DNA of 64,000 nucleotides. Source: Hephaestia sp. MAHUQ-44. Lineage in GTDB: Bacteria > Pseudomonadota > Alphaproteobacteria > Sphingomonadales > Sphingomonadaceae. Made by a program: the position numbers and the translations under genes. Positions 6,625 through 23,353 of the stretch are shown in pieces; positions within the stretch are counted from its first letter, which is position 1, and every line of letters starts with the position of its first letter. The DNA is taken from NCBI RefSeq assembly GCF_023806085.1, contig NZ_JAMSLX010000001.1, positions 1 to 64,000 on the forward strand, in the 5' to 3' direction. The notes under the pieces were generated by a model, which saw nothing but the letters and a program-made list of their open reading frames with translations, ran no database searches and had not been told where the DNA came from.

Positions 6625-6678
6625 GTCGGTGATCCCCTGGCTGCGACGGTGCAGCCCCGGGTGGGCGTTAGTGCGAGT

Positions 6679-6697: not shown

Positions 6698-6785
6698 AAA
6701 ATGACGCTGGCCGCGATACGCAGTCAGGCCGGCCCCGGATCGGCGTCGGTTTTATCGCGATGCCTCCGCTTCCCCAAAAATGCCC

Positions 6786-8306
6786 TCACCGCATGCCGAC
6801 ATAGGTGTCGCGCAGGGTCCGTTTCAGCACTTTGCCGATCTCGCTTCGCGGCAAGGTGTCGACGACGACGGCGTCCGCCAGTCGCTGGTTCTTGCCCAGC
6901 CGCGCGTTGACGCGCGCCATCACCGCCCCCGGCGCCACCCCGGCGCGGCGCGGCACCAGAAAGGCGACCGGCGTTTCGCCCCATGCCGCCGACGGCACCC
7001 CGACGACTGCCGCGTCCGCGACATCGGGATCGGCGCGCAGGACAATCTCGATGTCCGATGGATAGATATTGAACCCGCCCGAGATGATCACGTCCTTCTT
7101 GCGGTCGAGCAGGGTCAGGAAACCATCGGCATCGAAGCGACCGATATCGCCGGTGCGGATATAGCGGTGGCCGGCATCGTCGACCCACGTCGCGTCGGCC
7201 GTCAACCGGGGCTGGTTGTGATAGGCGGTCATCATCGCCACCGATCGGCCGACGATCTCGCCGGCCTCGCCCACCCCGACCTCGCGCCCGTCATCGTCGA
7301 TCAGCCGCATGATGTGCCCCTCGACCGGGCGACCGACCGTCTCGAGCTTGTCGGGGTGGAGGTGCGCGGCGAGCGTCGCGGTCGCCCCACCCTCGGTCAT
7401 CCCGTAGATCTCGACCAGCCCGCCCGGCCAGCGTGCGAGGATATCGGCCTTGAGCGCGGCGGAAAACGGCGCACTCGTGCAGGTCTTCATCCGAAAGCGC
7501 GACAGGTCGTATGCGTCGAAATCGGGATGCGCCATGATCCGCGCATATTGAACCGGTACGAGCATCGCGTGTGTCACCCGGTGCCGCATCGCCAGATCGA
7601 GGAAGCCGCCCGCATCGAATTTGCGCATCAGCACCAGCGTTCCCCCAAACGCCAGCGCCGGGATCATGCTCACCAGCGTCGTGTTCGAATAGAGCGGGGT
7701 GGAAAGCAATGTGACGGCATCGTCCGCATAGCCGGCCAGCCGTCCGCGCTGAATATGCGCCCAGCGCATCGCATGGCTCTGGACGATGCCCTTGGGAGTT
7801 CCGGTCGTCCCCGACGAATAGATGATGTTGAACCCGTCACCCGGCGCAACCGGCGTCGCGGCGATGCGCACGGCACCCGCCATCCATGGATCGAGCGCTT
7901 CCAGCGGGACGATGCGGACGTCGGTTGCGTCGCCGATGCGCGATGCCTGGGCCGCGTCGGCGAACAGCAGGGCAGCGCCACTATCCGCCAGCATCGTTGC
8001 GAGCTGATCGACGGTGGCGCCGGGCGGCAGCGGCACTGCCACGCCGCCCGCGCGCAAAATCGCGAGAAACATCTCGACGTAGCGCGCCGACATCCCTGCG
8101 AGGATCGCGACACGATCGCCAGGCCGCACACCATCACGCCGCAACGCCGCCGCACCACAGGATACGGCCGCGTCGAATGCCGCATAGCCGATGCGCGCGT
8201 CGCCATCGACGATCGCGACATGGTCTCCGCGATCGACGGCGTGCGCCGCCACCAGATCGGACAACGTCGAAAAATCGCGCGCCAGCAGAGCGTCCGCCGC
8301 GCTCAC
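6786..8306 (-). CDS. AMP-forming acyl-CoA synthetase-like ligase
   Basis: A 506-residue class I adenylate-forming enzyme. It has the P-loop YSSGTTGTPKG (163-173), the YGMTEGG adenine motif (about 297), the RTGD motif near 390 and the catalytic Lys492 (SEIGKVLKR). It would activate a carboxylic acid as acyl-AMP and then form acyl-CoA. It follows the GH5 gene with a 4-bp overlap (8303-8306), so the two are one transcript. It probably activates an acid released or oxidised in this pathway, possibly to feed the neighbouring phytanoyl-CoA-dioxygenase-like enzymes. Chain length and substrate cannot be read from sequence. Confidence 0.85.
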   Translation of the reverse strand: MSAADALLARDFSTLSDLVAAHAVDRGDHVAIVDGDARIGYAAFDAAVSCGAAALRRDGVRPGDRVAILAGMSARYVEMFLAILRAGGVAVPLPPGATVDQLATMLADSGAALLFADAAQASRIGDATDVRIVPLEALDPWMAGAVRIAATPVAPGDGFNIIYSSGTTGTPKGIVQSHAMRWAHIQRGRLAGYADDAVTLLSTPLYSNTTLVSMIPALAFGGTLVLMRKFDAGGFLDLAMRHRVTHAMLVPVQYARIMAHPDFDAYDLSRFRMKTCTSAPFSAALKADILARWPGGLVEIYGMTEGGATATLAAHLHPDKLETVGRPVEGHIMRLIDDDGREVGVGEAGEIVGRSVAMMTAYHNQPRLTADATWVDDAGHRYIRTGDIGRFDADGFLTLLDRKKDVIISGGFNIYPSDIEIVLRADPDVADAAVVGVPSAAWGETPVAFLVPRRAGVAPGAVMARVNARLGKNQRLADAVVVDTLPRSEIGKVLKRTLRDTYVGMR

Positions 8307-10300
8307 CGCGGGCTGATCTCGATCCGGGTGGGGCCTGCCTTGGCGGCGCGCACGCGCAGAAGCTGGCCGTCGAGCGAGGCCTCGCCATCGGTCCGCACGT
8401 CGATCCCCTCGGGATAATGGAAACCGGGAACGTAAATTTCGGTCGGCGCCGAAACCCCCATGTCGGCATCGAACGCGAGCGTGAAGGCGCGTGTCGCGCG
8501 ATCGAACCGCACGCTTTCGATCTGCCCCTGCACATGGCGTGCATAGGGGCGACAGAAACCGGCGATCCCCCGCCCGCCCGAATCCGGGTCCGACGGATCA
8601 TTCTGTTGATCGCGCGAAAAGATCGACAGATCCTCCTGATTCCAATTGTCGCCGATCCTGAGATCGTTGCGGTTCGACGCGGTGTAATTCCACTGCGTCG
8701 AATTGAGCTGCAACGCATCGAGCGCATCATACATCAACGACAGCAAAAGATCGTGGGTCGCCCAGATCGCCGGGCTACGCTCGCCGCGTTCCCACGCCGC
8801 ATAGGCCGCGCCCTCATCGAGATCGTATGGAATCCCGAATTCGCCGACCAGCGCGGGTGCCCCGTTGAGCGTCGAGGCCTTCGCCGACGTGGATTTGTGC
8901 GACATCTGCGCGATGAACCGCGCGCGCACCTGATCCTCGCCCACGGCGCGCTCGCCGGTCAGAAAATCGTATGAATTATTGGGGTCGAAGGTTTTCAGAT
9001 ACAGCGTGGTCGCATCGTACCAATGGCTCGCGTTGACCGTGCGTTCGGGCACGATCCTGGGGAATGGCCGGCCCGACGAGGCGCCGAACGCATCGAGTTC
9101 GGCGAACACCATCCAGTCGGGATTATGACGGCGCGTGGTTTCGGCGACGCCGTGAAACAGCGGGCCGAAGCCGTCTTCAGAAATGGTCACCCGCCGCCCG
9201 TCGCGCACGCGGAAAAACTCGTCGTCGAGGGCAATCGCCCGCCCGTCCTCCACCGTCCAGGCACCGGCAGCGCGGAACGGGCAGGATTGGCCGTCGCGCC
9301 AGATCGAGACGCCGTTGGGATTGATCCGGCGAACCCCGGCAGGTTCAGCCTGGCCGCTATCGCGGTTTCGCTTGAGCACCGGCACCTCTACCGTCAACCC
9401 GCTCGCCGCGGCGAGTCCGTCGAGCGCGGATATCGCGGCACCGGGGCGCGGACGCGTCTGGTTTTCCTCCGTCGCCGCGACATGGCGATAGCTCAGGCGC
9501 TCGCCGACCCATCCGGTGCCGGGCTCGTTGAGCGTATCGAAGCCGAGCACATGCGGCATATCGCGCAGCCGCGCCGCAATCGCCTCCATCGATCCCAGAT
9601 AATGACGCTGGAGATAATGCTGGATATTCTCGCCCCCGACCTTGTGATCGGGCGTGAACAATGCACCGCACCAGAACAGCGTCCACATGATCGTATTGCC
9701 CGGCAGGCGGTAATTCGATCCCCAGCTCATCTGCGGATATTGCGGCTGACGGCGCACATCGCTGCCATAATCGTAGACATGCTGCATGACGTGCGCGGCG
9801 TCGGCCGCGGCGAATTTCGTGAAATCGAGCCCCGCCGCCTCGAAGGTCCAGCCCGGCGCGCCGTCGCCCCCCGTCATCCGCGACCAGACATCCTGGTGGA
9901 AATCGACGAACAGATAGAGGCCGTGCTTTGCCGCGCGCGCGCAGACCTCGGTAAAATAATCCAGATATTCCTGATCGTGCCGGCCCGGGCCGCCATGCTC
10001 GACGGCTTCCCACGTGGTCAGCAACCGCAGGCAGTTGAACCCCCAATGGGCGAGACGACCAAGATGCTCGTCGGCCTCCGCGATCGGAAACGGGCGACCG
10101 ACGAACGAGACATCGCGATGATCGGCGAAGTCGCTGGGATATTGGGTGCCGCCATGCGGCGCGGGCACCTTGCAGTCTCCACCCAGATTAACCCCGCGCA
10201 AGATGGTGTGCCGTCCGGCGCTGTCGCGAAACCGGCTGCCGTCGATCCGCAGCACCGGGGTCGCACCGGCTCCCGCTCGCTCAAAAGTCGATTGCACCAT
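8303..10300 (-). CDS. GH5 glycosidase, steryl-glucosidase/glucocerebrosidase-like
   Basis: A 665-residue glycoside hydrolase family 5 protein. The TIM barrel carries the acid/base Glu259 (TLNEPG) and the nucleophile Glu487 (LVGEFG). Distinctive blocks such as FHQDVWSRMTGGDGAPGW (134-151) and a NIQHYLQRHY motif (225-234) recall fungal EGCrP1/EGCrP2, the intracellular glucocerebrosidase and sterylglucosidase of subfamily GH5_12. A C-terminal beta domain follows from about residue 590. No signal peptide is seen, so the enzyme should act in the cytoplasm on an imported glycoside. It is divergent from four oxygenase genes and co-transcribed with an acyl-CoA ligase. The subfamily assignment is from memory of motifs and needs a phylogeny. 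Confidence 0.82.
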   Translation of the reverse strand: MVQSTFERAGAGATPVLRIDGSRFRDSAGRHTILRGVNLGGDCKVPAPHGGTQYPSDFADHRDVSFVGRPFPIAEADEHLGRLAHWGFNCLRLLTTWEAVEHGGPGRHDQEYLDYFTEVCARAAKHGLYLFVDFHQDVWSRMTGGDGAPGWTFEAAGLDFTKFAAADAAHVMQHVYDYGSDVRRQPQYPQMSWGSNYRLPGNTIMWTLFWCGALFTPDHKVGGENIQHYLQRHYLGSMEAIAARLRDMPHVLGFDTLNEPGTGWVGERLSYRHVAATEENQTRPRPGAAISALDGLAAASGLTVEVPVLKRNRDSGQAEPAGVRRINPNGVSIWRDGQSCPFRAAGAWTVEDGRAIALDDEFFRVRDGRRVTISEDGFGPLFHGVAETTRRHNPDWMVFAELDAFGASSGRPFPRIVPERTVNASHWYDATTLYLKTFDPNNSYDFLTGERAVGEDQVRARFIAQMSHKSTSAKASTLNGAPALVGEFGIPYDLDEGAAYAAWERGERSPAIWATHDLLLSLMYDALDALQLNSTQWNYTASNRNDLRIGDNWNQEDLSIFSRDQQNDPSDPDSGGRGIAGFCRPYARHVQGQIESVRFDRATRAFTLAFDADMGVSAPTEIYVPGFHYPEGIDVRTDGEASLDGQLLRVRAAKAGPTRIEISPR

Positions 10301-10338
10301 GATTGTCGCGCCCCGCTGTTGTGATGGATCGTGGCAGA

Positions 10339-10367
10339 AATTGATCGAAAAATGATTTGTTTGTCAA
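10339..10367 (-). promoter_or_regulatory. Candidate promoter of the GH5-ligase operon
   Basis: On the minus strand TTGACA (10367-10362) lies 17 bases before a weak -10, TCAATT (10344-10339). An overlapping TCGATCAA (10348-10341) recurs near the promoters of both TonB receptors of this locus. It may be an operator for a common regulator. The 200-bp divergent region to the oxygenase genes is notably AT-rich. Confidence 0.45.
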
Positions 10368-10500
10368 TTCTGATATATTAATTGGTCAAGGTGCGATGCC
10401 GAACCAGGGTTTACCCGGCGTCAAAACGCTTGCGTCGACCCGTAAAAATAGATAGAGATTTTGATAATTCGTTAGTTTCGGTCGAATCAAGGATATCGCC

Positions 10501-11301
10501 ATGGACCTGGAGCGAAGCTGGAACGAGCAGGGCTTTTTCATCAAGCGCGGCTTGATCGATGAGGACGAAGTCGCTGCGATCGAAGCGGAAATCGTGGCCG
10601 CGATCCGCGCGGACCCGCCCCGCAACCATGGGGGCGAGCGGCTCTATCCCACCGTGGACGACCTGCTGATCTACCCGGAAAAATCACCGAGCCCGGCGGC
10701 CCGCAATCCGGAGGATTATATCGCCAAGGTGTTCAACGGCCATTGTGTCGGCACCGCGAAGGCGATCGCAACCGATCCCCGGCTGACCGATCCGCTCGCC
10801 CCCTTGCTGGGCGCGAATCTGGACTGTTTCCAAAGCCAGTTCATCTTCAAGAATCCGGGGGTGATCGGGCAACCGTGGCACCAGGATTCCTATTATTTCC
10901 GCTACGATCGGCAACCGCAGGCAACGGTGTGGGTCGCGCTCAGCGCAGCGACGCTCGACAACGGATGCCTGTGGGTCGTGCCGGGTTCGCACCGCGCGCA
11001 CGAGGTGTTCGATCACGTTCCCGACCAGCGCCCCGAAAGCCTGCAAGGCTATCTCGAGATCGTGTCGCAGGACACATCGATGGAAGAGCCGGTGCTGATG
11101 GAGCCCGGCGACGTCCTGTTCTTCCACAGCTATCTGATGCACCGCTCGACCGACAATATCGCCGACTACCGGCGCTCGGCGATGGTGTATCATTATGCCG
11201 AAAACGGCACCCAGCCGATCGACGCCCTCGCGGCCGCAACCCTGGCCCCGGTCAATCGCTGGATGCCCGCGCGCCGCGCCGCCACCCCGCTTTCCGCTTG
11301 A
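10501..11301 (+). CDS. PhyH-family Fe(II)/2-oxoglutarate oxygenase, copy 1
   Basis: A 266-residue phytanoyl-CoA-dioxygenase-like protein on the double-stranded beta-helix fold. The iron ligands are His127-x-Asp129 (WHQDSYY) and His214 (LMHRST). Arg224/225 (RRSAMVYH) is placed to bind 2-oxoglutarate. The NGCLWVVPGSHR block is typical of the family. AAGGA lies seven bases before the ATG. It is the first of four consecutive plus-strand oxygenases, divergent from the GH5 operon. The family hydroxylates lipids, CoA thioesters or natural products, and the substrate here is unknown. Confidence 0.85.
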   Translation: MDLERSWNEQGFFIKRGLIDEDEVAAIEAEIVAAIRADPPRNHGGERLYPTVDDLLIYPEKSPSPAARNPEDYIAKVFNGHCVGTAKAIATDPRLTDPLAPLLGANLDCFQSQFIFKNPGVIGQPWHQDSYYFRYDRQPQATVWVALSAATLDNGCLWVVPGSHRAHEVFDHVPDQRPESLQGYLEIVSQDTSMEEPVLMEPGDVLFFHSYLMHRSTDNIADYRRSAMVYHYAENGTQPIDALAAATLAPVNRWMPARRAATPLSA

Positions 11302-11315
11302 TAGGTGATACGACC

Positions 11316-12128
11316 ATGGACGTGCCTGCCCCTCGCCCGCATCAGCTCAACCGCGACTTCACCTGGCAGAACGTGCCCGGCGATCGCGCGCCGCGCCGGC
11401 TCAGCGCCGATCAGATCGCAGCCTTCGATCGCGATGGCTTCCTGCGGATCGAACAAGCCTTCAGCCGCGAGGAACTGGCGCGCGTCGAAGCCGCGATCGA
11501 CCCGATCGAGGAAGAGCACGCACGCTATGTCGCCGAACAGCAGGGTGGCAACTTCCGGCTCACATCGACCGGCGCGATCTCGTTTACCGCGCACCTCGTG
11601 GGCAAGGCGCCCGTGCTGCGCGATTTCGCCGCCCATCAGGTGATCGCCGATCTCTGCCACGACCTGATCGGCGAGCGGGTCCGGCTGTATTGGGATCAGT
11701 CGGTCTACAAGAAAACGCAGAAGAAACAGGAATTCCCCTGGCATCAGGATAATGGCTACACCTTTATCGAGCCCCAGCAATATCTGACCTTCTGGATTCC
11801 GCTGGTCGATGTCGACGAGGATAACGGATGCCCGTGGATCGTCCCCGGCCTCCACCTTGGCGGCACGCTGGAACATTGGGTGACGCCGATCGGGCTCAAA
11901 TGCCTTGAAGAGGCGCCCGACGCAGTCGCCGTGCCGGCGCGTGTCGGCGACATCATCCTGTTCTCGTCGCTCTCGCCCCACCGCACCGGGCCCAATTTGC
12001 GCGACGGCACCGTGCGCAAGGCCTATATCCTGCAATATGCCCCCGATGGTGCGCACACGATCGTCGACGGCAAGGTGATCCGTCAGGATGATCCGGTGCG
12101 TCAGTTCGTGATCGGAGACGCCGCATGA
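11316..12128 (+). CDS. PhyH-family Fe(II)/2-oxoglutarate oxygenase, copy 2
   Basis: A 270-residue paralogue with the facial triad intact: His143-x-Asp145 (PWHQDNGY) and His222 (SPHRTG), plus Arg234 for 2-oxoglutarate. The family block NGCPWIVPGLH is present. The ATG at 11316 begins 14 bases after the previous gene, and the 3' end overlaps the next gene by 4 bp. Together this argues for one transcript and coordinated dosage. The sequence between motifs differs strongly from copy 1, so a distinct step or substrate is likely. Confidence 0.85.
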   Translation: MDVPAPRPHQLNRDFTWQNVPGDRAPRRLSADQIAAFDRDGFLRIEQAFSREELARVEAAIDPIEEEHARYVAEQQGGNFRLTSTGAISFTAHLVGKAPVLRDFAAHQVIADLCHDLIGERVRLYWDQSVYKKTQKKQEFPWHQDNGYTFIEPQQYLTFWIPLVDVDEDNGCPWIVPGLHLGGTLEHWVTPIGLKCLEEAPDAVAVPARVGDIILFSSLSPHRTGPNLRDGTVRKAYILQYAPDGAHTIVDGKVIRQDDPVRQFVIGDAA

Positions 12129-13000
12129 CGGCCGCGACCGGGCTGGCGCGCGCCGATCTGGCGCTGCTCCAGCAACAATATGAACGCGACGGCTTCGTCG
12201 CGGTGCGCCAACTCATCGACCCCGCCGAACTCGCTGCGCTGGCATCGACGGTGATCGACGCCGTGGGTCGCCGCAAGGCGCATGACACGCGCTCGCTCGA
12301 CGAGAAATCGCGCTACGAACAATCGTTCGTGCAATGCCAATATCTGTGGGAAGACAATCCCGCGATCCGACCGCTCACCTTCCACCAGGCGGTGTGCGGC
12401 ATGGCGGCTGCATTGATGCATGCGCCCGCAGTCCGCCTGTGGCACGATCAGGCGCTCTTCAAGGAGCCTGGTGGCAAGCCGACCCAGGCGCATCAGGACC
12501 ATCCCTATTGGCCGATCGCCGAAGACCGGACGATCACGGCCTGGATTCCGCTGATCCCGGTCGATCGGACCACCGGCTGCATGGGCTATGTGCCCGGATC
12601 GCATCGCGAGGCCCCGCAATTCGTCGACATCTTCGCCGGTGACGACAGCGCCGGCCCGCAGATCGAAAGCAAGGCGGTGTTCGTGCCGGCCGAGCCGGGC
12701 GACGTGCTGTTCCATCACGGCCGCACGATGCACATGGCAATGCCCAACGCGTCCGATCACATGCGCCGCGCCTATACCGCGATCTATTTCGCCGACGGCT
12801 GCACGCGTGGCGGGGATCGCCCGCACCCTTCGGTCGATCGCGACGGCATCGCGGTCGGCAAGGTGATCGACGGCGCCGCAACCCCCATCGCATGGCCGCT
12901 GCCGCAAGGCCGTTTCCCCGAGCCCGGCCCCTGGCCGAATCTCGACAACGAACGCACCAGGCGCGCGCTGGAACTGGGGATCATTCCCTCGCGCGGCTGA
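12125..13000 (+). CDS. PhyH-family Fe(II)/2-oxoglutarate oxygenase, copy 3
   Basis: A 291-residue member with His123-x-Asp125 (QAHQDHPYW), His203 (TMHMAMPN) and Arg214/215. The VDRTTGCMGYVPGSHR block matches the PhyH consensus closely. The start ATGA overlaps the stop of copy 2. It is the longest of the four, with about 60 extra C-terminal residues ending in a Pro-rich stretch (PQGRFPEPGPWP). Like its neighbours it is soluble, with no signal peptide, so it should act in the cytoplasm. Substrate unknown. Confidence 0.85.
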   Translation: MTAATGLARADLALLQQQYERDGFVAVRQLIDPAELAALASTVIDAVGRRKAHDTRSLDEKSRYEQSFVQCQYLWEDNPAIRPLTFHQAVCGMAAALMHAPAVRLWHDQALFKEPGGKPTQAHQDHPYWPIAEDRTITAWIPLIPVDRTTGCMGYVPGSHREAPQFVDIFAGDDSAGPQIESKAVFVPAEPGDVLFHHGRTMHMAMPNASDHMRRAYTAIYFADGCTRGGDRPHPSVDRDGIAVGKVIDGAATPIAWPLPQGRFPEPGPWPNLDNERTRRALELGIIPSRG

Positions 13001-13028
13001 TACGGCGCCCGACAACGGAGCATCCACG

Positions 13029-13745: not shown

Positions 13746-13768
13746 AAGCCTGGCGCACGCCCCAACCT

Positions 13769-14605
13769 TCAGGCCAGCGCGGGGCGACGCGCGCGCCGGC
13801 CTTTGGCACTCGCCGAGGCGCGCAGCCGGGCCCGGATCGTCTCGCGCATCGGCTCGCCACTCGCGAAGAATTTCTCAAGCAGCTTGTTCACGCTGCCGAT
13901 GTCGCCCGACACGATCGCGTCGACCAGCACGCGGTGTTCGGCATGGCTGTCGCGTTCGCGGTCGGTCGCCAGATCGGCGCACAGATTGACATAGCGTTCG
14001 GCCCGCGCGCCGAGGTCGCCGACGATCGTCTGAAGCAGCGGCGAGCCGCAGCCGGCGAGCAGTTCCTGATGCAGGTTCTTATAGGCCCATTGCCACAATT
14101 CGCGGGCCTCGGGCTCGGCGTCGGTCATCACCTTGCTGATCTTGAGCGAGCGATGGAGCGCGAGCACGACGCGCTCCTCCCACGCCTCGTCGGCGCGTTC
14201 CACCGCCATCATCAACGCAAGCTGATAGGTTCGCCAGTAAACATCGATCAAGTCGGAATAATCATCAAGCGAGATACCGGCGACGCGGTAACCCTTCTGA
14301 TGCTCATGAACGACCAGTCCGCTCGCGGAGAGAAGCAGGATCGCCTCGCGCACCGGGCTGTGGCCGACGCCGTAGAATTTGGTGAGCTGCTCGACCTTCA
14401 GCCGTTCCAACGGGGTAAACACGCCGCGCACGATATCGCGCCGCAGCCAGTGCGCGGCGGCCTGTGTCGGATTTCGCTGGGGGTCGATTCCCGCCTGAAG
14501 GCGCGGGTCGGTAAAAGTCGAGACCGAAACAAGACGATCAGCAGTCAACACGCGCCCCTTCTGGCTGGGTGATCGAACCTCGATCTTCATACCTTGTGCG
14601 AGCAT
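13769..14605 (-). CDS. GntR-family (FadR/FCD) transcriptional regulator
   Basis: A 278-residue regulator. A winged helix lies at about residues 46-110 (the HSPVREAILLLSASGLVVHE block is the GntR signature), followed by an all-helical FCD ligand domain at about 120-250. Such proteins usually sense carboxylic acids or sugar acids and repress catabolic genes. It sits between the oxygenase operon and the TonB/MFS genes and is the only regulator in the locus, so it probably controls it. The first ATG (14605) is used; a second in frame at 14590 has an AAGG nearby. Confidence 0.85.
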   Translation of the reverse strand: MLAQGMKIEVRSPSQKGRVLTADRLVSVSTFTDPRLQAGIDPQRNPTQAAAHWLRRDIVRGVFTPLERLKVEQLTKFYGVGHSPVREAILLLSASGLVVHEHQKGYRVAGISLDDYSDLIDVYWRTYQLALMMAVERADEAWEERVVLALHRSLKISKVMTDAEPEARELWQWAYKNLHQELLAGCGSPLLQTIVGDLGARAERYVNLCADLATDRERDSHAEHRVLVDAIVSGDIGSVNKLLEKFFASGEPMRETIRARLRASASAKGRRARRPALA

Positions 14606-14636
14606 GAGTTCAAAGCGTTAGCAATCGACGCACGAC

Positions 14637-14669
14637 GCGGGCGGGCCATCGATCGATCGGCCCGCCCGC
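14637..14669 (-). terminator. Strong hairpin after TonB receptor 1
   Basis: GCGGGCGGGCC (14637-14647) and GGCCCGCCCGC (14659-14669) form an 11-bp GC stem around an ATCGATCGATC loop. It lies 11 bases past the receptor stop at 14680 and upstream of the GntR gene. There is no U-run, but the position supports termination or RNA protection. Confidence 0.55.
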
Positions 14670-14679
14670 CGCGTTGATA

Positions 14680-17019: not shown

Positions 17020-17061
17020 TCTGACCTCCCCTATAATTTATATCACTTTCTTGTTTTGATA

Positions 17062-17090
17062 AATTTTGATCGAATTTATGATAATGTCAA
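17062..17090 (-). promoter_or_regulatory. Candidate promoter of TonB receptor 1
   Basis: On the minus strand TTGACA (17090-17085) stands 17 bases before AAAATT (17067-17062), and TCGATCAA (17073-17066) lies between or over them. GATCGAA (17068-17074) also has an inverted partner, TTCGATC, at 17094-17100. The same -35 and octamer recur before the GH5 operon and near receptor 2. Confidence 0.45.
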
Positions 17091-17108
17091 CAGTTCGATC
17101 ATTTTCAA

Positions 17109-18491
17109 TTAGTGCGGATCGGCTGGCGCCAGGGCCATTTGTCGTCCCACGAGATCGTTCGATATCCGGTCATGGACGCCGCGCCGCAGCGGGTGGTGCC
17201 AGATCGCCACCGCCGCAATTGCCAGGCCGGCCAGCGGAAAGCAGATCATGACCAGCTTGATCCCCGCCAGCGTCGCTTGAGACTGTTCGACATTGGGGAC
17301 GAACCCCACCCAATCGAGCGCGATCCCAAACACGCCGGCGGCGACGCCGAGCGCGACTTTCTGGAAGAAGATCCCGAACCCGAAAATGAACGATTCGGTC
17401 CGCAACCCCGATCGCCATTCACCATATTCGACCGTATCGGGCAGCATCGACCAATAGGTCATGTTGAGGCCCAGCGTCGCGACGTGGAGCAACAGAAAGA
17501 CGATTCCCGCGCCGATCGCATCGCGCACATCGAGCAAGGCGAACAGCAACAACACGCCGACTGCCCAGCTACTCGCCACGAACCATGCGCCGCGCTTGTC
17601 GGTGAATTTGGTCACCTGCACCCAGGCTGGAATGATGAGGAGCCCGGCGGCTGCCTTGGCCGACAGCGCGTAGCGCGCGCTGGCTTCGTCATGAACGAAA
17701 TATTTGTAATAATAGAGGATCGATTTGCCGATCACCGTGCTGCACAGCGCCGCCGACGTAACCGCAATCATCACGAGCCAGAACGCACGGTTGACGCGGA
17801 TCGCGCGCCAATAATCGCTGAGCCGTGCGGTGGAGATGCTGTCGGACGCCAGCACCGGCTCGCGCGTGTTGAACACGACGATCGGCAGGATCGCGGTCGC
17901 GATCGTCGCGATCACGCACGCCGCGTAGAAAAAGCCGGTTGCCGCATCGCCGCCACCGAACCACGCCACCATCGGCTGGGTCAGGAACGACACCGTCAAC
18001 CCGGCCAATGTCGCAAAGAACATCCGAAAGCCGGCAAGCGAACTTCGCTCGTCCGAACGCTGCGTGATCCGCGCCGTCAGCGAGCAATAGGGAATCGACA
18101 CCGCCGTATAGGCGACGCGGAAAAACAAATGGGTCACCAGCACGATCGCGAGCAGCCCCAGCCCGGTTGCTGCCGGTTTCCAGTAAAGCCCGGCAAACGA
18201 CAGCCCTAGTGGGAGCGCCCCGGCCAGAATCCACGGTCGGTAGCGGCCCCACCGCGTCCGTGTGCGGTCGGCGACCGCGCCCATCAGCGGATCGATCGCG
18301 CCATCGAAGATCGACGCGATCATATAGATCAGTCCCGCCGTGCCCGCCGACAGCCCCACCACGTCGGTGTAATAGAACATCAGAAACAGCGAGATGCTTT
18401 GCCAATAGAGATTGCAGGCATAGTCGCCGATGGCGAACCCCGCTTTTCCCCGGAAGCTCAAGGAGGCCGCGGCGTTGTCACGATCGGGCAA
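17109..18491 (-). CDS. GPH-family sugar:cation symporter 1 (MFS)
   Basis: A 460-residue, 12-helix transporter of the glycoside-pentoside-hexuronide:cation symporter family (MelB-like). The signature FDGAIDPLMGAVADRT followed by RTRWGRYRPW marks the loop between helices 2 and 3, and DTVEYGEWRSGLRTES is a second family block. The start is a TTG at 18491 preceded by GGAG at a seven-base spacing; no better ATG is in frame. It probably carries the sugar or whole glycoside across the inner membrane after receptor 1. It is a paralogue of the next transporter. Confidence 0.88.
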   Translation of the reverse strand: MPDRDNAAASLSFRGKAGFAIGDYACNLYWQSISLFLMFYYTDVVGLSAGTAGLIYMIASIFDGAIDPLMGAVADRTRTRWGRYRPWILAGALPLGLSFAGLYWKPAATGLGLLAIVLVTHLFFRVAYTAVSIPYCSLTARITQRSDERSSLAGFRMFFATLAGLTVSFLTQPMVAWFGGGDAATGFFYAACVIATIATAILPIVVFNTREPVLASDSISTARLSDYWRAIRVNRAFWLVMIAVTSAALCSTVIGKSILYYYKYFVHDEASARYALSAKAAAGLLIIPAWVQVTKFTDKRGAWFVASSWAVGVLLLFALLDVRDAIGAGIVFLLLHVATLGLNMTYWSMLPDTVEYGEWRSGLRTESFIFGFGIFFQKVALGVAAGVFGIALDWVGFVPNVEQSQATLAGIKLVMICFPLAGLAIAAVAIWHHPLRRGVHDRISNDLVGRQMALAPADPH

Positions 18492-18670
18492 AGGCGCTCT
18501 CCATACGCAAACAAATTTAGATTCGAATTACAGGTATTTCTCTTATTCGATTTATTTGTAGCAATCGCCACTCGCCCGACAAGCCCCCTTGGACAGGCGC
18601 ATTCCCGGCATCGGCAGCCGCCGTCGGCGCTGTCGGGGAAGGCCGCGAAACCGGGTGCAGGCAGCCGCGT

Positions 18671-20050
18671 CTACTCAGGCGACACGCGGCCGCTGCTACG
18701 GCGCTCCGCGATCTCGCGCACGATCTGTTCGTGCATCCGCCCGCGCAGCGGATAGAAGATCATGATCGCCCCTGCGAGCACCAGGCCCACGGCGGGCAGC
18801 GCCGTCATCAGCAATTTCATATTGGCCAGCGTTTCGGCGGTTTGCGGCATATTGGCGCGGTATCCGATCCGTTCGAGCAACCAGCCGTACAGCCCCGCAC
18901 CCAGCCCCAGCGCGACCTTCAGAAAGAATTGCCCCAACCCGAAGACGAAACTCTCGGTCCGCAGCCCGGTGCGCCATTCGCCATATTCGACCGTATCGGG
19001 AAGGATCGACCAGAAGCCAAACGCGATTCCCAGCCCTGCAACCTGCATCCACAGGAAGAAGGTAATCGCCCCGGCGGTGCTGCGCACATCGAACATGGCG
19101 AAAGTGGCGAGCCCCATCAGCCCCAGCACGACAGCGGCAAACCAGGCGTTGCGCTTGCCGATCCATTTGGTGACCATCACCCAACACGGCACCACCGCGA
19201 GCCCGGAGGCCGCCGCAAGCGTCAGCGCGAGACGCCCCCCGTTTTCATCGCCGACATAGTATTTGAAATAATAGAGGATCGATTTGCCGATCGCGGTCGA
19301 GCAGATCACCCCCGCGCACGCCGCGAGCACCATCGCCCACAGCGCACGATTTTCCCGCAGCGCCACCCAATATTCGCCCAAATTATGCGGGCTGCGGTCC
19401 TCACCGGTTTCGGCCGGTTCCTGCGTCGCGAAGAACACGATCGGCAACACGATACTGGCAACCACCGCGAAGATCGCCGCCGCCCAGAAGAACCCGGTGG
19501 CCGGATCGTCGTCGCCGAAGCGTTCGGCCAGCGGCTGCGTGAAATACGCCACGGTAAACCCGGCCAGCGTCGCGAAGATGATGCGCCCCCCCGCGACCAC
19601 GCTGCGCTCGCCCGAATCCGAGGTGATCCGCGCCGACAGCGCGGTAAAGGGTATCGAGACGATGGTGTAGGCGAGGCGGAAGATGATGTGGGCGCCGAGC
19701 ATCCATGCGGCCAGCCACACCCCCTCGAACGGCGGGCGGTAGTAAAGCAGCATGAACGCTATCGCCACCAACGGCGTACCGCCCAGAATATAGGGGCGAT
19801 ACCGGCCCCAGCGCGTCCGCGTGCGATCGGCGATCGCGCCCATGATCGGATCGATCGCGGCATCGAAGATCGACGCGATCATATAGATCAGCCCGGCCGT
19901 CGCCGCACTCAGCCCCACCGCATCGGTGTAGAAGAACAGCAGGTAGAGCGAGACGCTCTGCCAATAGAGATTGAAGGCATAATCGCCGACGGTGAAGCCG
20001 ATAATACGCTTGGCACCGAGCCGCTGCCCGGCATTGACTGCCCCCACCAT
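18671..20050 (-). CDS. GPH-family sugar:cation symporter 2 (MFS)
   Basis: A 459-residue paralogue of the preceding transporter. It shares the NLYWQS start of helix 1, AAIDPIMGAIADRTRTRWGRY, KSILYYFKYYV and DTVEYGEWRTGLRTESFVFG. Twelve membrane segments are evident. It lies between symporter 1 and the isomerase gene, separated from the latter by 71 bp that contain TCGATATTAT (20084-20093), also found upstream of receptor 2. The duplicate transporter/receptor sets suggest two related substrates or two regulatory states. Confidence 0.88.
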   Translation of the reverse strand: MVGAVNAGQRLGAKRIIGFTVGDYAFNLYWQSVSLYLLFFYTDAVGLSAATAGLIYMIASIFDAAIDPIMGAIADRTRTRWGRYRPYILGGTPLVAIAFMLLYYRPPFEGVWLAAWMLGAHIIFRLAYTIVSIPFTALSARITSDSGERSVVAGGRIIFATLAGFTVAYFTQPLAERFGDDDPATGFFWAAAIFAVVASIVLPIVFFATQEPAETGEDRSPHNLGEYWVALRENRALWAMVLAACAGVICSTAIGKSILYYFKYYVGDENGGRLALTLAAASGLAVVPCWVMVTKWIGKRNAWFAAVVLGLMGLATFAMFDVRSTAGAITFFLWMQVAGLGIAFGFWSILPDTVEYGEWRTGLRTESFVFGLGQFFLKVALGLGAGLYGWLLERIGYRANMPQTAETLANMKLLMTALPAVGLVLAGAIMIFYPLRGRMHEQIVREIAERRSSGRVSPE

Positions 20051-20121
20051 CCTCGCCTTACCTCGCTTTTTTGATACGCTGGATCGATATTATCGAGAAC
20101 GGTTCGGGGGTGCGCGTCGCC

Positions 20122-21003
20122 TCATGACGCAAGCGCCTGCTTCGCTGCATCGAAACATTGTTCGGCGACCGCGATCAGAAACGCCGCCTCGGTCCACCGG
20201 TCGCTTTCCTCGCGCAGAACCCCGTCGGGGCCCGGCACCATCTTGGGATAAAAGGCGCGCGCCGGCAGCAATTCGGGGTGAACCGCGATATAATCGCCCG
20301 GCCCGGCGCTCCGTAGGAAACCCTCGAACGCCGCAATCCACATCCGCTTGTAATAATCGAGGTGACGGCTTTCGGCGGGATCACTGGCGGTGACCTGACC
20401 GAAGGCGTTCGACGACAGGCGCAGATGCAGAAAGCGCGTCCGCTCGAAGACCGGGCGCAGCGCCGCGAACTTCATCTCCATATCGCCATAAGTGAATTCG
20501 TGGCCGATATACCAATGGCCGAAATCGCCGTTGAACCGCAACTCGGGCAAGCGCTCGATCAGGTCGAGCGTGCGACGGATATCCTGCGTCATCGTCGCCC
20601 GGTGGGTTTCCAGATAGACCGGATGGCGCTCGGTCAAGGCGATGTCGAGCATCGCCTCGGCCAGCCGCAGCATCTCATCGTCGCTCTCGAAGCCGGTGCC
20701 CAGATGGGCGGTGGTGCAATCGCACCCGGCATCGCGACGCGCCTTCACGGCATCGCGCATCTGGCCGACATCGTCGAACACCCGGATCAGCCCGGTCGGG
20801 ATCAACCCCGCATCGGTGGCGATCGCGGGATCGAGGCATTGATACGCTTCATACCCCGCCGCCTTGATCGCCGCGGCGATCTCCGCCGCCGTGCCGCGCG
20901 GCCCCGCCGACCAGTCCGGCAGGTCCGCGGGGGTGACGAAGCTCATCCCGTGCAACAACCGCGGCGGGCGGTCGGTGCCGTCGTTGGTGTTCGGCACGCC
21001 CAT
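20122..21003 (-). CDS. Sugar phosphate isomerase/epimerase-like TIM-barrel protein
   Basis: A 293-residue protein of the xylose-isomerase/AP-endonuclease-2 TIM-barrel superfamily. Plausible metal ligands are the Glu in VYLETHRAT, Asp and His in GDFGHWYIGHE, and the Glu in AVHPELLP. I chose the ATG at 21003, one base after the stop of receptor 2, over longer starts that would overlap that gene. It should be translated from the receptor 2 mRNA. In similar loci such proteins isomerise, epimerise or cleave modified sugars, such as 3-keto-glycosides. The reaction here is not determined. Confidence 0.75.
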   Translation of the reverse strand: MGVPNTNDGTDRPPRLLHGMSFVTPADLPDWSAGPRGTAAEIAAAIKAAGYEAYQCLDPAIATDAGLIPTGLIRVFDDVGQMRDAVKARRDAGCDCTTAHLGTGFESDDEMLRLAEAMLDIALTERHPVYLETHRATMTQDIRRTLDLIERLPELRFNGDFGHWYIGHEFTYGDMEMKFAALRPVFERTRFLHLRLSSNAFGQVTASDPAESRHLDYYKRMWIAAFEGFLRSAGPGDYIAVHPELLPARAFYPKMVPGPDGVLREESDRWTEAAFLIAVAEQCFDAAKQALAS

Positions 21004-21004
21004 G

Positions 21005-23287
21005 TCAGAAAGCGACATCGAGCGACACGCCGACGCTGCGGCGTGCTTCATAGGGATTGTACTGGCTCAGGCTCTGCGGCGTGCCGAAGGGGGTCGCGAA
21101 CATCGCCGAGACGAAATGTTGATCGAGCAGGTTCTTGGCATAGACCGACACCCGCCAGCGATCGGTGTCGCCGACCAGCCCGATCGATCCATTGAGCAGC
21201 AGATAGCCGTCCTGCACGGTATCGGGATGGTTGGGAAACGACACGAACGTCGCCGACCGGTAATTGGCGCCGAGATCGAACGCGAGCCCCATCCGATCGC
21301 TCACCGGAGCGACATAATTGGCGCCGACCGCGAATTGCCATTCGGGCGAGAAGGGCAAGCGGAAGCCGGTGAGATCCTGCTGACCCGACACGCAGCCAAG
21401 CGCCGCCGTCTGGCCTGAATAGCAGGGCGCGTTGGGGAAATCCCCCCAGCGCGCGTCGACATAGGAACCGTTGGCGTTGAGCGTCAGATTGGTACCGCGC
21501 GGACGATAGGCGATTTCGACCTCGACCCCCTTGGTCCGCGCCTTGCTGCTGGTGATCGGATAGGTGCTGGTCGCCGCATCGCGGCCCGCGGTCTGGTAAT
21601 TCTCCACATCCATCCAGAAGCCGGTGACGTTGAAGGTCAGCCCGGCACCGGGCCACGAGGTGCGCACGCCGACCTCATAGTTGGTCGGTCGCTCGGGCTC
21701 GACCTCGCGCAGCAGGTTGTTGCCGATATTGGTATCGAATCCGCCGCCCTTGAACCCGCGGGTGACCGTGGCGAACACATTCGCATCGGGCGACAGCGTA
21801 TATTGCATTCCCCCGCGCCACACGACCGCATTAGTTTCCTTGCGCGCGGCCACCGCATCGGCAAGATCGAGGCGATAATCGGTGCGGCGCTTGGCGGCAT
21901 CGATCGTCTCGCGCACGACACGCACGCCCCCGATCAGCTTGAAGGCCTCCGTGATGTGGAGATTGGCCTGGCCGAACAGCGCCATATTTTCGGTATCGGC
22001 GCGAACATACACATCGCGCGCGAAGAACGGCAGCGGCACCTGCGGGAAGAATTGCTCCGAATTGGAATGGACGTTGGAGACGAAATAATAGGCGCCCGCG
22101 ACGAAATCGATCAGCTTGCCGGTGGGCGACGCGATCCGCAGTTCCTGGCTGAACTGCGATTGCCGGAAGAAGTTGGCGAAATTGACATTGAGCAGATCAA
22201 GCGGCGACGAATCGGAATCGAGCCCGTCGCTCGTATTCCATTCGCGCAACGCGCTGATCGAGGTCAGCATGTAATCGCCCATGCCCCAATCGACCTGCAG
22301 CGATCCGCCATAACTGGTTGCGTTCGAACGCACCTCGCCGTCGACATTCTGTTTCTCGTTGCGCGCACCGGGTACGATCCCCGCGTCGATCGCCAATTGT
22401 TCGGTGGCCGAAGGCGGCGAACCGACGTCGCGGAAGGTCCACAGGCAGCAATCCGCGTTGCGCGCGTAATAATCGCCGATCATCGTGATGGTGACATCCG
22501 AGGTTGGCGTCATCTCGATCTTGCCGCGAAACCCGTAATCGTCGCGCCCGTTCAGGCGACGGCCGTCGAAGACGTTGGTGATATGCCCGTCGCGCAGATT
22601 GCGCCGCCCCGACACCGAGAAGCGGACGACATCGTTGATCGGGCCGCTGACATACAGGCTGAAGCGGCGGTCGTTATCGGGCCAGCCCCAACTGGCGCTG
22701 CCGCGTACCTCGAGCGTTTCGGAGGGGCTTCGGGTGATGACGTTGACGACACCGGCCGAGGCGTTCTTTCCGAACAGCGTCCCCTGCGGCCCGCGCAGCA
22801 CCTCGATCCGTTCGACATCGGGAAGATCGGTCACCGATGCCCCCGCCTGGCCGAGCACCACGCCGTCGAGAACATAGGCCGTGCTCGCCTCGATCGCCTC
22901 GGACGAAAACGAACTGGTGCCGATCCCGCGTACGAAAAAGCCGAAATTGCGCGGCCCCGCGGTGCTGAAGGCGGTCACCCCCGGCACCAGATATTGCAGA
23001 TCGGACGATTCGTTGAATTTCAGCGTGTCGATCGTATCGCCCTGCACGACGGCGACCGACAGCGGAACGTCCTGAAGCCGCTCGCTTCGGCGTTGTGCGG
23101 TAACGATGATGTCACCGGCGGCGTCAGCTTTCGACGACGATGTCTCCTGCGCGGGCGCGACCGCCGATGCCGGCTCTTGTGGATCGGCCCCGGCCGTCTG
23201 GGCGATCGCCGCCGGTACGGCCCCTGCCATAGCGACACCAGCGACAGCCTGCAGCAGCACGGCTTTCCGCCATCTCAGATCGAGCAT
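21005..23287 (-). CDS. TonB-dependent receptor 2 of the glycoside locus
   Basis: A 760-residue outer-membrane receptor. It has a signal peptide (MLDLRWRKAVLLQAVAG..., cleavage near AAIAQ), a TonB box (DIIVTAQRRSERLQDVP), a plug with the RGIGTSSFSSEAIEAS and LRGPQGTLFGKNASAG blocks, and a barrel ending in SLDVAF. The start at 23287 is chosen because GGAGG stands about ten bases upstream; the frame also opens at 23314. It is a paralogue of receptor 1, sharing long near-identical plug blocks and the barrel motif PCYSGQTAA. The isomerase-like gene follows one base after its stop. Confidence 0.92.
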   Translation of the reverse strand: MLDLRWRKAVLLQAVAGVAMAGAVPAAIAQTAGADPQEPASAVAPAQETSSSKADAAGDIIVTAQRRSERLQDVPLSVAVVQGDTIDTLKFNESSDLQYLVPGVTAFSTAGPRNFGFFVRGIGTSSFSSEAIEASTAYVLDGVVLGQAGASVTDLPDVERIEVLRGPQGTLFGKNASAGVVNVITRSPSETLEVRGSASWGWPDNDRRFSLYVSGPINDVVRFSVSGRRNLRDGHITNVFDGRRLNGRDDYGFRGKIEMTPTSDVTITMIGDYYARNADCCLWTFRDVGSPPSATEQLAIDAGIVPGARNEKQNVDGEVRSNATSYGGSLQVDWGMGDYMLTSISALREWNTSDGLDSDSSPLDLLNVNFANFFRQSQFSQELRIASPTGKLIDFVAGAYYFVSNVHSNSEQFFPQVPLPFFARDVYVRADTENMALFGQANLHITEAFKLIGGVRVVRETIDAAKRRTDYRLDLADAVAARKETNAVVWRGGMQYTLSPDANVFATVTRGFKGGGFDTNIGNNLLREVEPERPTNYEVGVRTSWPGAGLTFNVTGFWMDVENYQTAGRDAATSTYPITSSKARTKGVEVEIAYRPRGTNLTLNANGSYVDARWGDFPNAPCYSGQTAALGCVSGQQDLTGFRLPFSPEWQFAVGANYVAPVSDRMGLAFDLGANYRSATFVSFPNHPDTVQDGYLLLNGSIGLVGDTDRWRVSVYAKNLLDQHFVSAMFATPFGTPQSLSQYNPYEARRSVGVSLDVAF

Positions 23288-23353
23288 TGCGCACCCCCTC
23301 CGAAAGCGAGGCATTTTTAGCCCCCACCAGAGAATTTATCTAAAATAGCATTA

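What the first reader, a model, noticed from the sequence alone, without database searches (positions are those of the whole stretch)
6786..23287. Candidate new catabolic locus: cytoplasmic GH5 glycosidase, acyl-CoA ligase, four PhyH oxygenases, paired receptors and symporters
Seen: GH5 and ligase overlap by 4 bp and are divergent from four consecutive PhyH-type genes; a GntR/FCD regulator, two TonB receptors, two GPH symporters and a TIM-barrel isomerase-like gene follow. Known: EGCrP-type GH5 enzymes cleave steryl glucosides or glucosylceramide inside cells, PhyH enzymes hydroxylate acyl-CoAs or lipids, and GPH proteins move glycosides. Inference: the cell imports an intact glycosylated lipid-like molecule, cuts off the sugar in the cytoplasm, activates the aglycone or a side chain as CoA ester and oxidises it in several steps. 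I know of no described pathway with this exact gene set.
Basis: partly seen in the sequence, partly recalled or inferred. Interest (0 to 1): 0.82.

Follow-up and report, generated by a model that had tools for sequence, protein, structure and literature searches.

The report
Sphingomonad glucoside-lipid uptake and oxidation locus
A sphingomonad bacterium carries a set of genes, most of them sharing one putative control site, that look built to import a small glucose-bearing oily molecule, cut off the glucose inside the cell with an enzyme resembling the fungal enzyme that splits sterol glucosides, and oxidise what is left; the exact molecule is still unknown.

Summary
The gene set is real and is more than a chance neighbourhood. 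The GH5 (8303-10300) is closest in sequence and predicted fold to fungal sterylglucosidases; all eleven Sgl1 residues checked are identical, including the Trp that restricts Sgl1 to one sugar. All four PhyH proteins keep the HxD...H and Arg residues. A PhyH2 orthologue lies near GH5 in 8 of 32 GH5 loci, and GH5 and PhyH2 divergence track each other (r 0.85). A motif, AAAATTTATCGAAA, learned only from two other species, scores at least 12 bits upstream of four of five transcription units here (GH5|PhyH, TBDR1, GPH1, TBDR2) and in 0 of 42 control intergenic regions; S. colocasiae carries it on two contigs. Most likely: a regulon importing an intact mono-beta-glucoside with a bulky hydrophobic aglycone (steroid or terpenoid favoured), hydrolysing it in the cytoplasm and oxidising the aglycone. 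Substrate, order of steps, PhyH targets and the motif-binding regulator are inferred. The ligase and PhyH4 are not part of the conserved core; the TIM-barrel protein is only weakly placed. Ten searches of an open-access library showed no paper on this gene set.

The parts
6786..8306 (-). Acyl-CoA ligase-type AMP-binding enzyme (506 aa), 4-bp overlap with the GH5 gene
   Evidence: PF00501 E 2.2e-70; the 25 NCBIfam hits shown are all below their curated cut-offs, so substrate class undefined; 61% orthologue downstream of GH5 in S. colocasiae
8303..10300 (-). GH5, sterylglucosidase (Sgl1/SglA)-like beta-glucosidase, 665 aa, no hydrophobic N-terminal stretch seen by eye
   Evidence: phmmer 8exd 6.4e-73, 7lpo 5e-72; AF2 pLDDT 86.6; Foldseek Sgl1 E 1.4e-56, TM 0.85; VIA Z 37.7 over 623 residues; catalytic E259/E487 and sugar-gate W553 conserved
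10337..10350 (+). Shared motif site between GH5 and PhyH1
   Evidence: 18.9 bits with motif trained on other species
10501..11301 (+). PhyH1, Fe(II)/2-oxoglutarate oxygenase
   Evidence: PF05721 1.2e-32; HxD...H...R intact
11316..12128 (+). PhyH2, the oxygenase most often found with GH5
   Evidence: PF05721 1.3e-29; present near GH5 in 8 of 32 loci incl. this one, others 51-77% identical; best PDB hits SnoK, EctD, EvdO2
12125..13000 (+). PhyH3
   Evidence: PF05721 7.4e-34; orthologues in S. mali and S. colocasiae C1
13029..13745 (+). PhyH4, not the best match of any gene in the other 31 GH5 loci
   Evidence: PF05721 3.1e-28
13769..14605 (-). GntR/FCD regulator; candidate (untested) for binding the shared motif
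   Evidence: GntR 6.5e-15, FCD 9.3e-12; relatives in S. mali (two, 59 and 73%) and S. colocasiae (80%)
14680..17019 (-). TonB-dependent receptor 1
   Evidence: 71-73% orthologue in S. colocasiae
17054..17067 (-). Shared motif site upstream of TBDR1
   Evidence: 16.0 bits held-out; overlaps a sigma70-like site
17109..18491 (-). GPH symporter 1
   Evidence: TIGR00792 333.9 bits, cut-off 231.35
18545..18558 (-). Shared motif site upstream of GPH1
   Evidence: 14.0 bits held-out
18671..20050 (-). GPH symporter 2
   Evidence: TIGR00792 350.2 bits; no good motif site of its own (3.6 bits)
20122..21003 (-). Xylose-isomerase-like TIM-barrel protein; E132, D160, H193, E244 conserved in 3 of 3 orthologues (proposed as metal ligands by analogy, recalled)
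   Evidence: S. colocasiae orthologue hits AP_endonuc_2; low-confidence fold nearest DgpC/ketoglycoside lyases/epimerases
21005..23287 (-). TonB-dependent receptor 2
   Evidence: partial 54% match at the edge of the S. mali locus
23331..23344 (+). Shared motif site upstream of the TBDR2-TIM-GPH2 run
   Evidence: 16.7 bits held-out

Best explanation
A substrate-inducible sphingomonad regulon for scavenging a mono-beta-glucoside with a bulky hydrophobic aglycone. TBDR1 and TBDR2 bring the glucoside across the outer membrane and the GPH symporters bring it, intact, across the inner membrane. The cytoplasmic GH5, built like fungal sterylglucosidases, removes the single glucose. The PhyH enzymes (PhyH2 is the conserved one) hydroxylate the aglycone, or the glucoside before cleavage, using Fe(II), O2 and 2-oxoglutarate. 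The ligase activates a carboxylate as CoA ester for breakdown. The operons are tied together by an AAAATTTATCGAAA-type operator, probably bound by the GntR/FCD regulator. Shown by computation: gene identities, GH5 active site and fold, PhyH ligand motifs, synteny, shared motif. Inferred: import of the intact glucoside, PhyH target, ligase target, order, regulator. The aglycone class (steroid or terpenoid) is the weakest link: about 0.4 on its own.
For: GH5: best sequence matches are sterylglucosidases. The model aligns to Sgl1 over 623 residues, Z 37.7, against 408-419 residues for endoglycoceramidases and roughly 280-325 for cellulase-type GH5s. Residues equivalent to Sgl1 K47, H142, D144, N269, E270, Y453, L458, E520, W570, W584 and E587 are identical (roles from PMC8497620). 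PhyH: H, D, H and R identical in 14 of 14 aligned proteins. Synteny: PhyH2 orthologue in 8 of 32 GH5 loci. Of 298 family genomes 36 have some PhyH2-like match, but only 3 have one of 50% identity or more, and all 3 are among the 7 with a strong GH5 match (p 8e-6; the 50% line was drawn after seeing the list). GH5/PhyH2 identities correlate, r 0.85. Regulation: held-out motif reaches 12 bits in 4 of 5 window upstream regions against 0 of 42 intergenic controls and 0 of 36 AT-rich tiles; the exact consensus (not held out) occurs twice in the 3.5-Mb genome, both here. Lipid-type context in other lineages: acyl-CoA-dehydrogenase pairs, FMO-like protein, sulfatase; FadD4-like ligase, MaoC, beta-lactamase-fold (esterase-type) proteins, TauD.
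Against: No biochemistry or expression data. The ligase orthologue is in 2 of 32 loci and PhyH4 in 1 of 32; 24 of 32 GH5 loci have no PhyH2 nearby, though some contigs are short. Two Sphingomonadaceae loci with this GH5 sit beside a GH106 rhamnosidase without PhyH in the region fetched; another sits by an L-ribulokinase and a weak fucose-isomerase match; another by an L-rhamnose symporter-like gene. So the glycoside differs between members, and GH5_12 also contains a flavonoid beta-glucosidase and glucosylceramidases (PMC3526467 passages). GPH2 has no good motif (3.6 bits); in S. colocasiae TBDR1 (6.4) and GntR (10.5) and in S. mali two of four regions (11.9, 9.5) fall below 12. One-mismatch sites occur elsewhere in all three genomes, one of them upstream of a TBDR-like gene near a PepSY-type gene in the own genome. 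No known steroid-ring degradation gene was recognised among the genes scanned in the locus. In the GH5 tree S. colocasiae C1 groups with two loci that lack PhyH.
Confidence: 0.55

Rival explanations
1. The substrate is an aryl or flavonoid glucoside (or hydroxycinnamoyl glucoside): GH5 removes glucose and the ligase activates a cinnamate- or benzoate-like acid; the PhyH genes hydroxylate side groups.
For: GH5_12 contains a yeast flavonoid beta-glucosidase (PMC3526467 passages). The two best ligase PDB hits are named fatty-acyl-CoA synthase and feruloyl-CoA synthetase. GH106 rhamnosidase beside two related GH5s.
Against: Four PhyH genes are not needed for known aromatic routes (recalled); no ring-cleavage or ring-hydroxylating gene among the genes scanned in the locus. 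Active-site residues and overall fold, cap included, follow the sterol enzyme, though of the residues lining the sterol only L458 was tested.
Confidence: 0.2
2. PhyH enzymes and the TIM-barrel protein act on the sugar part: the glycoside is oxidised on the sugar ring and opened by a ketoglycoside lyase/isomerase, with GH5 as a parallel or follow-up hydrolase.
For: TIM model's top rows are DgpB/C- and AgCarB2/C2-type C-deglycosidase entries (Z 11.3-11.8), with 3-keto-beta-glucopyranoside 1,2-lyases at 10.1-10.4. S. colocasiae has a Gfo/Idh/MocA gene directly beside the TIM gene. PhyH2's PDB hits include SnoK, SnoN, EvdO1 and EvdO2, which act on glycosidic sugars (recalled).
Against: TIM model is low confidence (pLDDT 61); IolE ties within 1 Z and sugar epimerases lie within about 1.5 Z of the top. 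No Gfo/Idh/MocA gene in the window's locus; the only one in the window (50340-51443) is just 28% identical to the S. colocasiae one.
Confidence: 0.15
3. The locus remodels the cell's own glycolipids (glycosphingolipid or hopanoid glycoside) rather than feeding on imported ones.
For: Sphingomonads make glycosphingolipids (recalled); fungal relatives are described as acting in glucosylceramide quality control and in vacuoles (titles seen).
Against: Two TBDRs and a GPH symporter carry the same upstream motif; rare, patchy distribution (8 of 298 family genomes) does not suit a housekeeping lipid.
Confidence: 0.06
4. The neighbours are unrelated genes brought together by chance.
For: PhyH4, the ligase and TBDR2 are poorly conserved at the locus.
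Against: Repeated GH5-PhyH2 linkage, co-divergence and a shared motif.
Confidence: 0.03

Closest known systems
Fungal sterylglucosidases Sgl1/EGCrP2 (Cryptococcus) and SglA (Aspergillus), GH5_12
   Same: Fold over about 600-623 residues, both catalytic Glu, glucose-binding residues, single-sugar gate Trp
   Different: About 27-32% identity; bacterial; 665 aa against 779-797; sits in an import/oxidation locus; activity unknown
Rhodococcus endoglycoceramidases (GH5_28/29)
   Same: GH5 catalytic domain plus C-terminal beta-sandwich (PF18564 in the window protein)
   Different: They are extracellular (PMC3526467 passage); only 408-419 residues align; EGCase II lacks the enclosed cavity and sugar-gate of Sgl1 (PMC8497620)
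Sphingobium sp. RC1 steroidal glycoalkaloid (tomatine) catabolism (PMC10653915, passages read)
   Same: Sphingomonad removing sugars from a plant steroid glycoside
   Different: Uses GH3, GH39, GH78, GH106 enzymes; 'GH5', 'phytanoyl', 'dioxygenase' and 'TonB' do not occur in the main text
C-glycoside deglycosidases DgpABC/CarBC
   Same: TIM-barrel relative by weak fold match; Gfo/Idh/MocA neighbour in S. colocasiae
   Different: Gfo/Idh/MocA absent from the window's locus; a DgpB-type partner was not searched for; fold match rests on a low-confidence model

Membership tests
Sterylglucosidase-type GH5 (GH5_12) | Two catalytic glutamates (Sgl1 E270, E520) | tested here: met
   E259 and E487
Sterylglucosidase-type GH5 (GH5_12) | Glucose-binding residues K47, H142, D144, N269, Y453, W570, E587 | tested here: met
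   7 of 7 identical
[quoted passage not shown]
   W553; identical in 28 of 28 aligned GH5s
Sterylglucosidase-type GH5 (GH5_12) | Cap region forming an enclosed hydrophobic Y-shaped pocket | tested here: inconclusive
   Model aligns over 623 residues to Sgl1 and the span between the catalytic Glu is 228 residues against 250 in Sgl1, but the cavity itself was not measured
Sterylglucosidase-type GH5 (GH5_12) | Hydrolysis of steryl glucoside or glucosylceramide | not testable with these tools
   needs enzyme assay
Sterylglucosidase-type GH5 (GH5_12) | CAZy subfamily assignment | not testable with these tools
   no CAZy subfamily models; literature says GH5_12 has a bacteria-dominated clade
Polysaccharide-active GH5 | Closest relatives are cellulases, mannanases or xylanases | tested here: not met
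   Those rank far below (best non-ceramidase, non-sterylglucosidase Foldseek E 1.8e-10 against 1.4e-56); none in the sequence list at E 0.001
PhyH (PF05721) Fe/2OG oxygenases | HxD...H iron triad and 2OG-binding Arg (roles recalled) | tested here: met
   All four window proteins; all above Pfam cut-off
PhyH (PF05721) Fe/2OG oxygenases | Acyl-CoA as substrate (phytanoyl-CoA type) | not testable with these tools
   PDB hits are mixed: PHYHD1, phytanoyl-CoA dioxygenase, SnoK, EctD, EvdO2
GPH:cation symporters | Score over TIGR00792 cut-off | tested here: met
   333.9 and 350.2 against 231.35 bits
Sphingobium-type saponin catabolic cluster | GH3/GH39/GH78/GH106 glycosidases | tested here: not met
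   None among the genes scanned from 4432 to 23314; S. mali does carry a GH3 nearby
C-glycoside deglycosidase (DgpBC-type) | DgpC-like TIM barrel | tested here: inconclusive
   Low-confidence model, Z 11.8, nearly tied with other superfamily members
C-glycoside deglycosidase (DgpBC-type) | Small beta-subunit partner (DgpB) | not tested
   no dedicated search for DgpB was run

The most novel reading that the evidence does not exclude
A previously undescribed bacterial route for steryl or triterpenoid glucosides: intact import by TBDR/GPH, cytoplasmic cleavage by the bacterial branch of GH5_12, and stepwise aglycone attack by a set of PhyH 2-oxoglutarate oxygenases instead of the cytochrome P450 or 9,10-seco enzymes used by known steroid degraders (recalled), all under one new operator.
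Probability: 0.3. Interest if true: 0.75.

Novelty: new variant of a known kind. Interest (0 to 1): 0.55.

Why it matters
Steryl and terpenoid glucosides are abundant in plants and fungi (recalled), and I found no description of a bacterial pathway of this make-up in the library searched. The GH5 subfamily review (passage read) describes a GH5_12 clade dominated by bacterial enzymes and, in that passage, names no characterised bacterial member. The conserved GH5-PhyH2 pair plus a predictable operator makes the question testable in two named cultured strains (S. mali NBRC 15500, S. colocasiae JCM 31229): which glucoside induces the regulon, and what the oxygenases do to the aglycone. It could also supply new glucosidases and C-H hydroxylases for terpenoid or steroid chemistry.

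Tried and rejected
Third TBDR (4432-6699) as part of the locus: left out, paired with PepSY_TM. Genes to the right (GGDEF response regulator, hybrid kinase, 23539-27389): no reason found to include them. The Gfo/Idh/MocA gene at 50340-51443 as the missing partner of the TIM protein: rejected, 28% identity and unrelated neighbours; the genome's other Gfo/Idh/MocA genes (8 matches in all) were not compared. Distant TIM homologues led to a different locus (GH31, FGGY kinase, ligase, PhyH), not informative for the substrate. Hexamer counting (ATCGAA in 12 of 15 upstream regions, 0 of 1000 shuffles reaching it) overstates the case, because 12 of 38 AT-rich tiles outside the locus also hold the hexamer; I rely on the held-out 14-column motif instead. 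S. mali gave only 2 control regions, so its test says little. With one mismatch allowed the consensus matches 6, 12 and 15 places in the three genomes, the backwards control 0, 1 and 2. Of these, 8 one-mismatch places outside the loci plus the exact S. colocasiae C23 site were inspected: 7 of the 9 lie inside a called reading frame; of the two intergenic ones, one (own genome C36, L115) is upstream of a TBDR-like gene in a PepSY-type neighbourhood and one (S. colocasiae C14, L111) upstream of small antitoxin-like genes (my reading); no further regulon member was recognised. The remaining one-mismatch sites, among them all of S. mali's, were not inspected. Palindromic versions of the motif fitted worse. 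Literature: ten searches showed no paper describing this gene set; several lists were capped (for example 15 of 36 and 12 of 341) and were judged by title and start of abstract; subscription papers and preprints are not held. Papers read: PMC8497620 (passages and section 8), PMC3526467 and PMC10653915 (passages); all others seen as listings only.

Rows dropped before counts: repeats of the same locus (L044=L012, L034/L050=L016, L021/L023=L040, L022=window, L024-L028, L030-L033 and L085-L096 as short copies of loci later fetched longer) were merged; five marginal GH5 hits (E 2e-7 to 1e-3) were left out of the 32; the tree left out the broken G052 copy and L100. L013/L014 and L098/L099/L100 and L105/L107 are close relatives and were counted separately.

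Full report
Observation. GH5 (8303-10300) and the AMP-binding ligase (6786-8306) share 4 bp on the minus strand. Four PhyH genes run the other way from 10501 to 13745. A GntR/FCD regulator, two TBDRs, two GPH symporters and a TIM-barrel gene follow on the minus strand to 23287. The own genome (3.5 Mb, 46 contigs) has 7 PhyH matches, 4 of them here. The genome belongs to Sphingomonadaceae in the tool's grouping: S. colocasiae is 'same family', and a MAG named Sphingomonas sp. D1_Bin_48 appears to be 'same genus', inferred from the matching contig length.

The glycosidase. Sequence comparison puts it with the fungal sterylglucosidases SglA (E 6.4e-73) and Sgl1 (E 5e-72), well before endoglycoceramidases (E 8e-14 and weaker), with no cellulase-type entry in the list at E 0.001. 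A 28-sequence AlphaFold2 model (pLDDT 86.6) gives Sgl1 as top structural match (Foldseek E 1.4e-56, TM 0.85). VIA-align aligns 623 of 665 residues to Sgl1 (Z 37.7, rmsd 2.8), 408-419 to endoglycoceramidases (Z 31.5-33.3) and roughly 280-325 to other GH5s such as cellulases (Z 25.2 and below). Residues that mutation or docking ties to glucose binding and catalysis in Sgl1 (PMC8497620, passages and section 8) were mapped by hand through the alignment, the chain numbering being one higher than the paper's. K47, H142, D144, N269, E270, Y453, L458, E520, W570 and E587, and the gate residue W584, correspond to K44, H135, D137, N258, E259, Y428, L433, E487, W537, E556 and W553, all identical. Across 28 bacterial GH5s these eleven positions are identical in every row except L019 (Bacteroidota) at four positions and a gap at one position in L107, whose range I had given too short. 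[quoted passage not shown] I could not run CAZy subfamily models, so membership in GH5_12 is very likely but not formally tested.

The oxygenases. In an alignment of 14 PhyH proteins from the window and four other genomes, the HxD...H triad and the Arg expected to bind 2-oxoglutarate (roles recalled) are invariant, so all four window proteins look active. Solved relatives are diverse: SnoK, EctD and EvdO2 lead for PhyH2, PHYHD1 and phytanoyl-CoA dioxygenase for PhyH1; PhyH3 and PhyH4 were not compared with the PDB. They do not settle whether an acyl-CoA, a terpenoid or a sugar is oxidised.

Synteny. Some contigs are short, so misses may be false. A PhyH2 orthologue is in 8 of 32: window, S. 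mali (two copies), S. colocasiae C13 and C1, Blastomonas (L012), L009, L017, L101 (51-77% identity to the window's). GPH symporters matching the window's are in 7 of 32. The clearest parallels are S. colocasiae C13 (GH5-ligase operon, then GPH1, TBDR1, GntR, Gfo/Idh/MocA, TIM, GPH2, PhyH2; 61-82% identity where there is a window counterpart), S. colocasiae C1 (PhyH1-PhyH2-PhyH3-GH5 in one run) and S. mali (TIM, GntR, GPH2, a second PhyH2, PhyH1-2-3, GntR, GH5). The PhyH-linked GH5s fall in separate parts of the GH5 tree: a sphingomonad group (window, S. mali, S. colocasiae C13, and C1 next to two loci without PhyH), the L009/L017/L101 clade, and L012. Pairwise identities of GH5 and PhyH2 over the eight loci correlate (Pearson 0.85 over 28 pairs, which are not independent). 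In 298 family genomes, 36 have some PhyH2-like match, but matches of 50% identity or more occur in only 3, all of them among the 7 with strong GH5 matches (hypergeometric p 8e-6, with the 50% line chosen after seeing the list). Against a strict reading: the ligase orthologue is in 2 of 32 loci and PhyH4 in 1 of 32.

Context in other lineages. In L009, L017 and L101 the pair sits with an acyl-CoA-dehydrogenase pair and an SDR, and in L017 and L101, whose stretches are longer, also with a sulfatase and an FMO-like protein (the L017 dehydrogenases are nearest pimeloyl-CoA dehydrogenase models but below their cut-offs). In families f11, f17 and f128 of the class, GH5 lies in varying combinations by acyl-CoA ligases, MaoC, prolyl-oligopeptidase, beta-lactamase-fold (esterase-type) proteins, nitronate monooxygenase, GMC oxidoreductase and TauD; ten proteins from L097, L098 and L107 were scanned with Pfam, one ligase with NCBIfam (FadD4-like, below cut-off), the rest assigned by BLAST to these. 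9 of the 12 class loci carry a ligase-type hit, at 28-31% to the window's. This favours lipid-like aglycones. Other members sit by a GH106 rhamnosidase (L042, L043), by an L-ribulokinase and a weak fucose-isomerase match (L016), or by an L-rhamnose-symporter-type gene (L108), so not every GH5 of this kind has the same substrate.

A shared operator. Upstream regions of the window (5), S. mali (4) and S. colocasiae (6) share AAAATTTATCGAAA. The clean test trains the motif on two species and scores the third. With S. mali and S. colocasiae as training, window sites score 18.9 (GH5|PhyH1), 16.7 (TBDR2), 16.0 (TBDR1), 14.0 (GPH1) and 3.6 (GPH2). Of 42 other intergenic regions fetched from this genome none reaches 12 (top 10.8), nor does any of 36 AT-rich tiles (top 11.1); shuffled copies of the five regions reach 12 in 0.23 regions on average, at most 2. 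For S. colocasiae 4 of 6 reach 12, including both loci, which lie on different contigs, against 0 of 25 intergenic regions and 1 of 50 AT-rich tiles. S. mali: 2 of 4, with only 2 controls. A consensus taken from all three species (so not held out) occurs exactly 5 times in three whole genomes (about 15.3 Mb): twice in this genome, both here; once in S. mali, between GH5 and GntR; twice in S. colocasiae, once upstream of PhyH1-2-3-GH5 and once inside a GTPase-type gene (my reading). GPH2 probably rides on the TBDR2-TIM-GPH2 run (inference). The GntR/FCD regulator, kept in all three species, is the obvious candidate binder, but this is untested.

The TIM-barrel gene. Three orthologues share E132, D160, H193 and E244, in the manner of xylose-isomerase-like metal sites (analogy recalled). 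The model is weak (pLDDT 61). Its best structural rows are DgpC-type C-deglycosidases, then IolE, epimerases and ketoglycoside lyases, the 50 rows shown spanning Z 11.8 to 9.4. A Gfo/Idh/MocA gene sits directly beside it in S. colocasiae, which makes a ketoglycoside role possible and is listed as a rival.

Verdict. I rate it a new variant of a known kind (sphingomonad glycoside-uptake and catabolic regulons), interest 0.55. Ten literature searches in an open-access library showed no description of this set, judged by listed titles and abstract starts; the nearest seen, tomatine catabolism in Sphingobium (PMC10653915, passages), uses other glycosidase families.

Noticed in passing
L078-L083 (G021 C4:288001-320000, G201 C1:183001-223000, S. 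colocasiae C18:180001-215000): A separate conserved locus in three sphingomonads: GH31, acyl-CoA ligase, FGGY kinase, DAO with alpha-glycerophosphate-oxidase C-terminal domain, FAD oxidase, Fe-ADH, PhyH, distant TIM-barrel, TBDR, MFS-type and a Cons_hypoth698 protein; looks like breakdown of a glycosyl-glycerolipid, perhaps a sulfolipid (guess). Pfam was run on the S. colocasiae copy, the others matched by BLAST.
   Followed up: partly
L042 3513-11334 and L043 9747-17749: Related GH5s beside a GH106 alpha-L-rhamnosidase, LacI-type regulator and GPH symporter, without PhyH in the region fetched: suggests rhamnosylated glucosides as substrates there.
   Followed up: partly
L108 3605-12443: GH5 with an L-rhamnose/proton symporter-type gene, a fuconolactonase-like gene (below cut-off) and SDRs nearby.
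   Followed up: no
L051 (S. mali) 89-9021: A GH3, TBDR, SapC, Cupin_8 and tryptophan-halogenase-like set directly beside the GH5/PhyH locus, typical of sphingomonad sugar-uptake clusters (recalled).
   Followed up: no
G052 C2:269826-271778 (L045): A GH5 copy broken into several reading-frame pieces.
   Followed up: no
window 3263-6699: PepSY_TM protein next to a TonB receptor, an iron-uptake-like pair bordering the locus.
   Followed up: no
window 23419-23442: Perfect inverted repeat with 10-bp arms (CCAGCGCATC/GATGCGCTGG, loop 4) between the TBDR2 upstream region and the GGDEF gene; terminator-like but without a T run.
   Followed up: no
L115 9592 (own genome C36:161592): One-mismatch copy of the shared motif upstream of a TBDR-like gene near a PepSY-type gene; chance or a further regulon member.
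   Followed up: no
L098/L099/L100/L105/L107: Conserved GH5 neighbourhood in other alphaproteobacterial families with acyl-CoA ligase, MaoC, prolyl oligopeptidase, beta-lactamase-fold proteins, and in L105/L107 also TauD: another catabolic context for this GH5 branch.
   Followed up: partly
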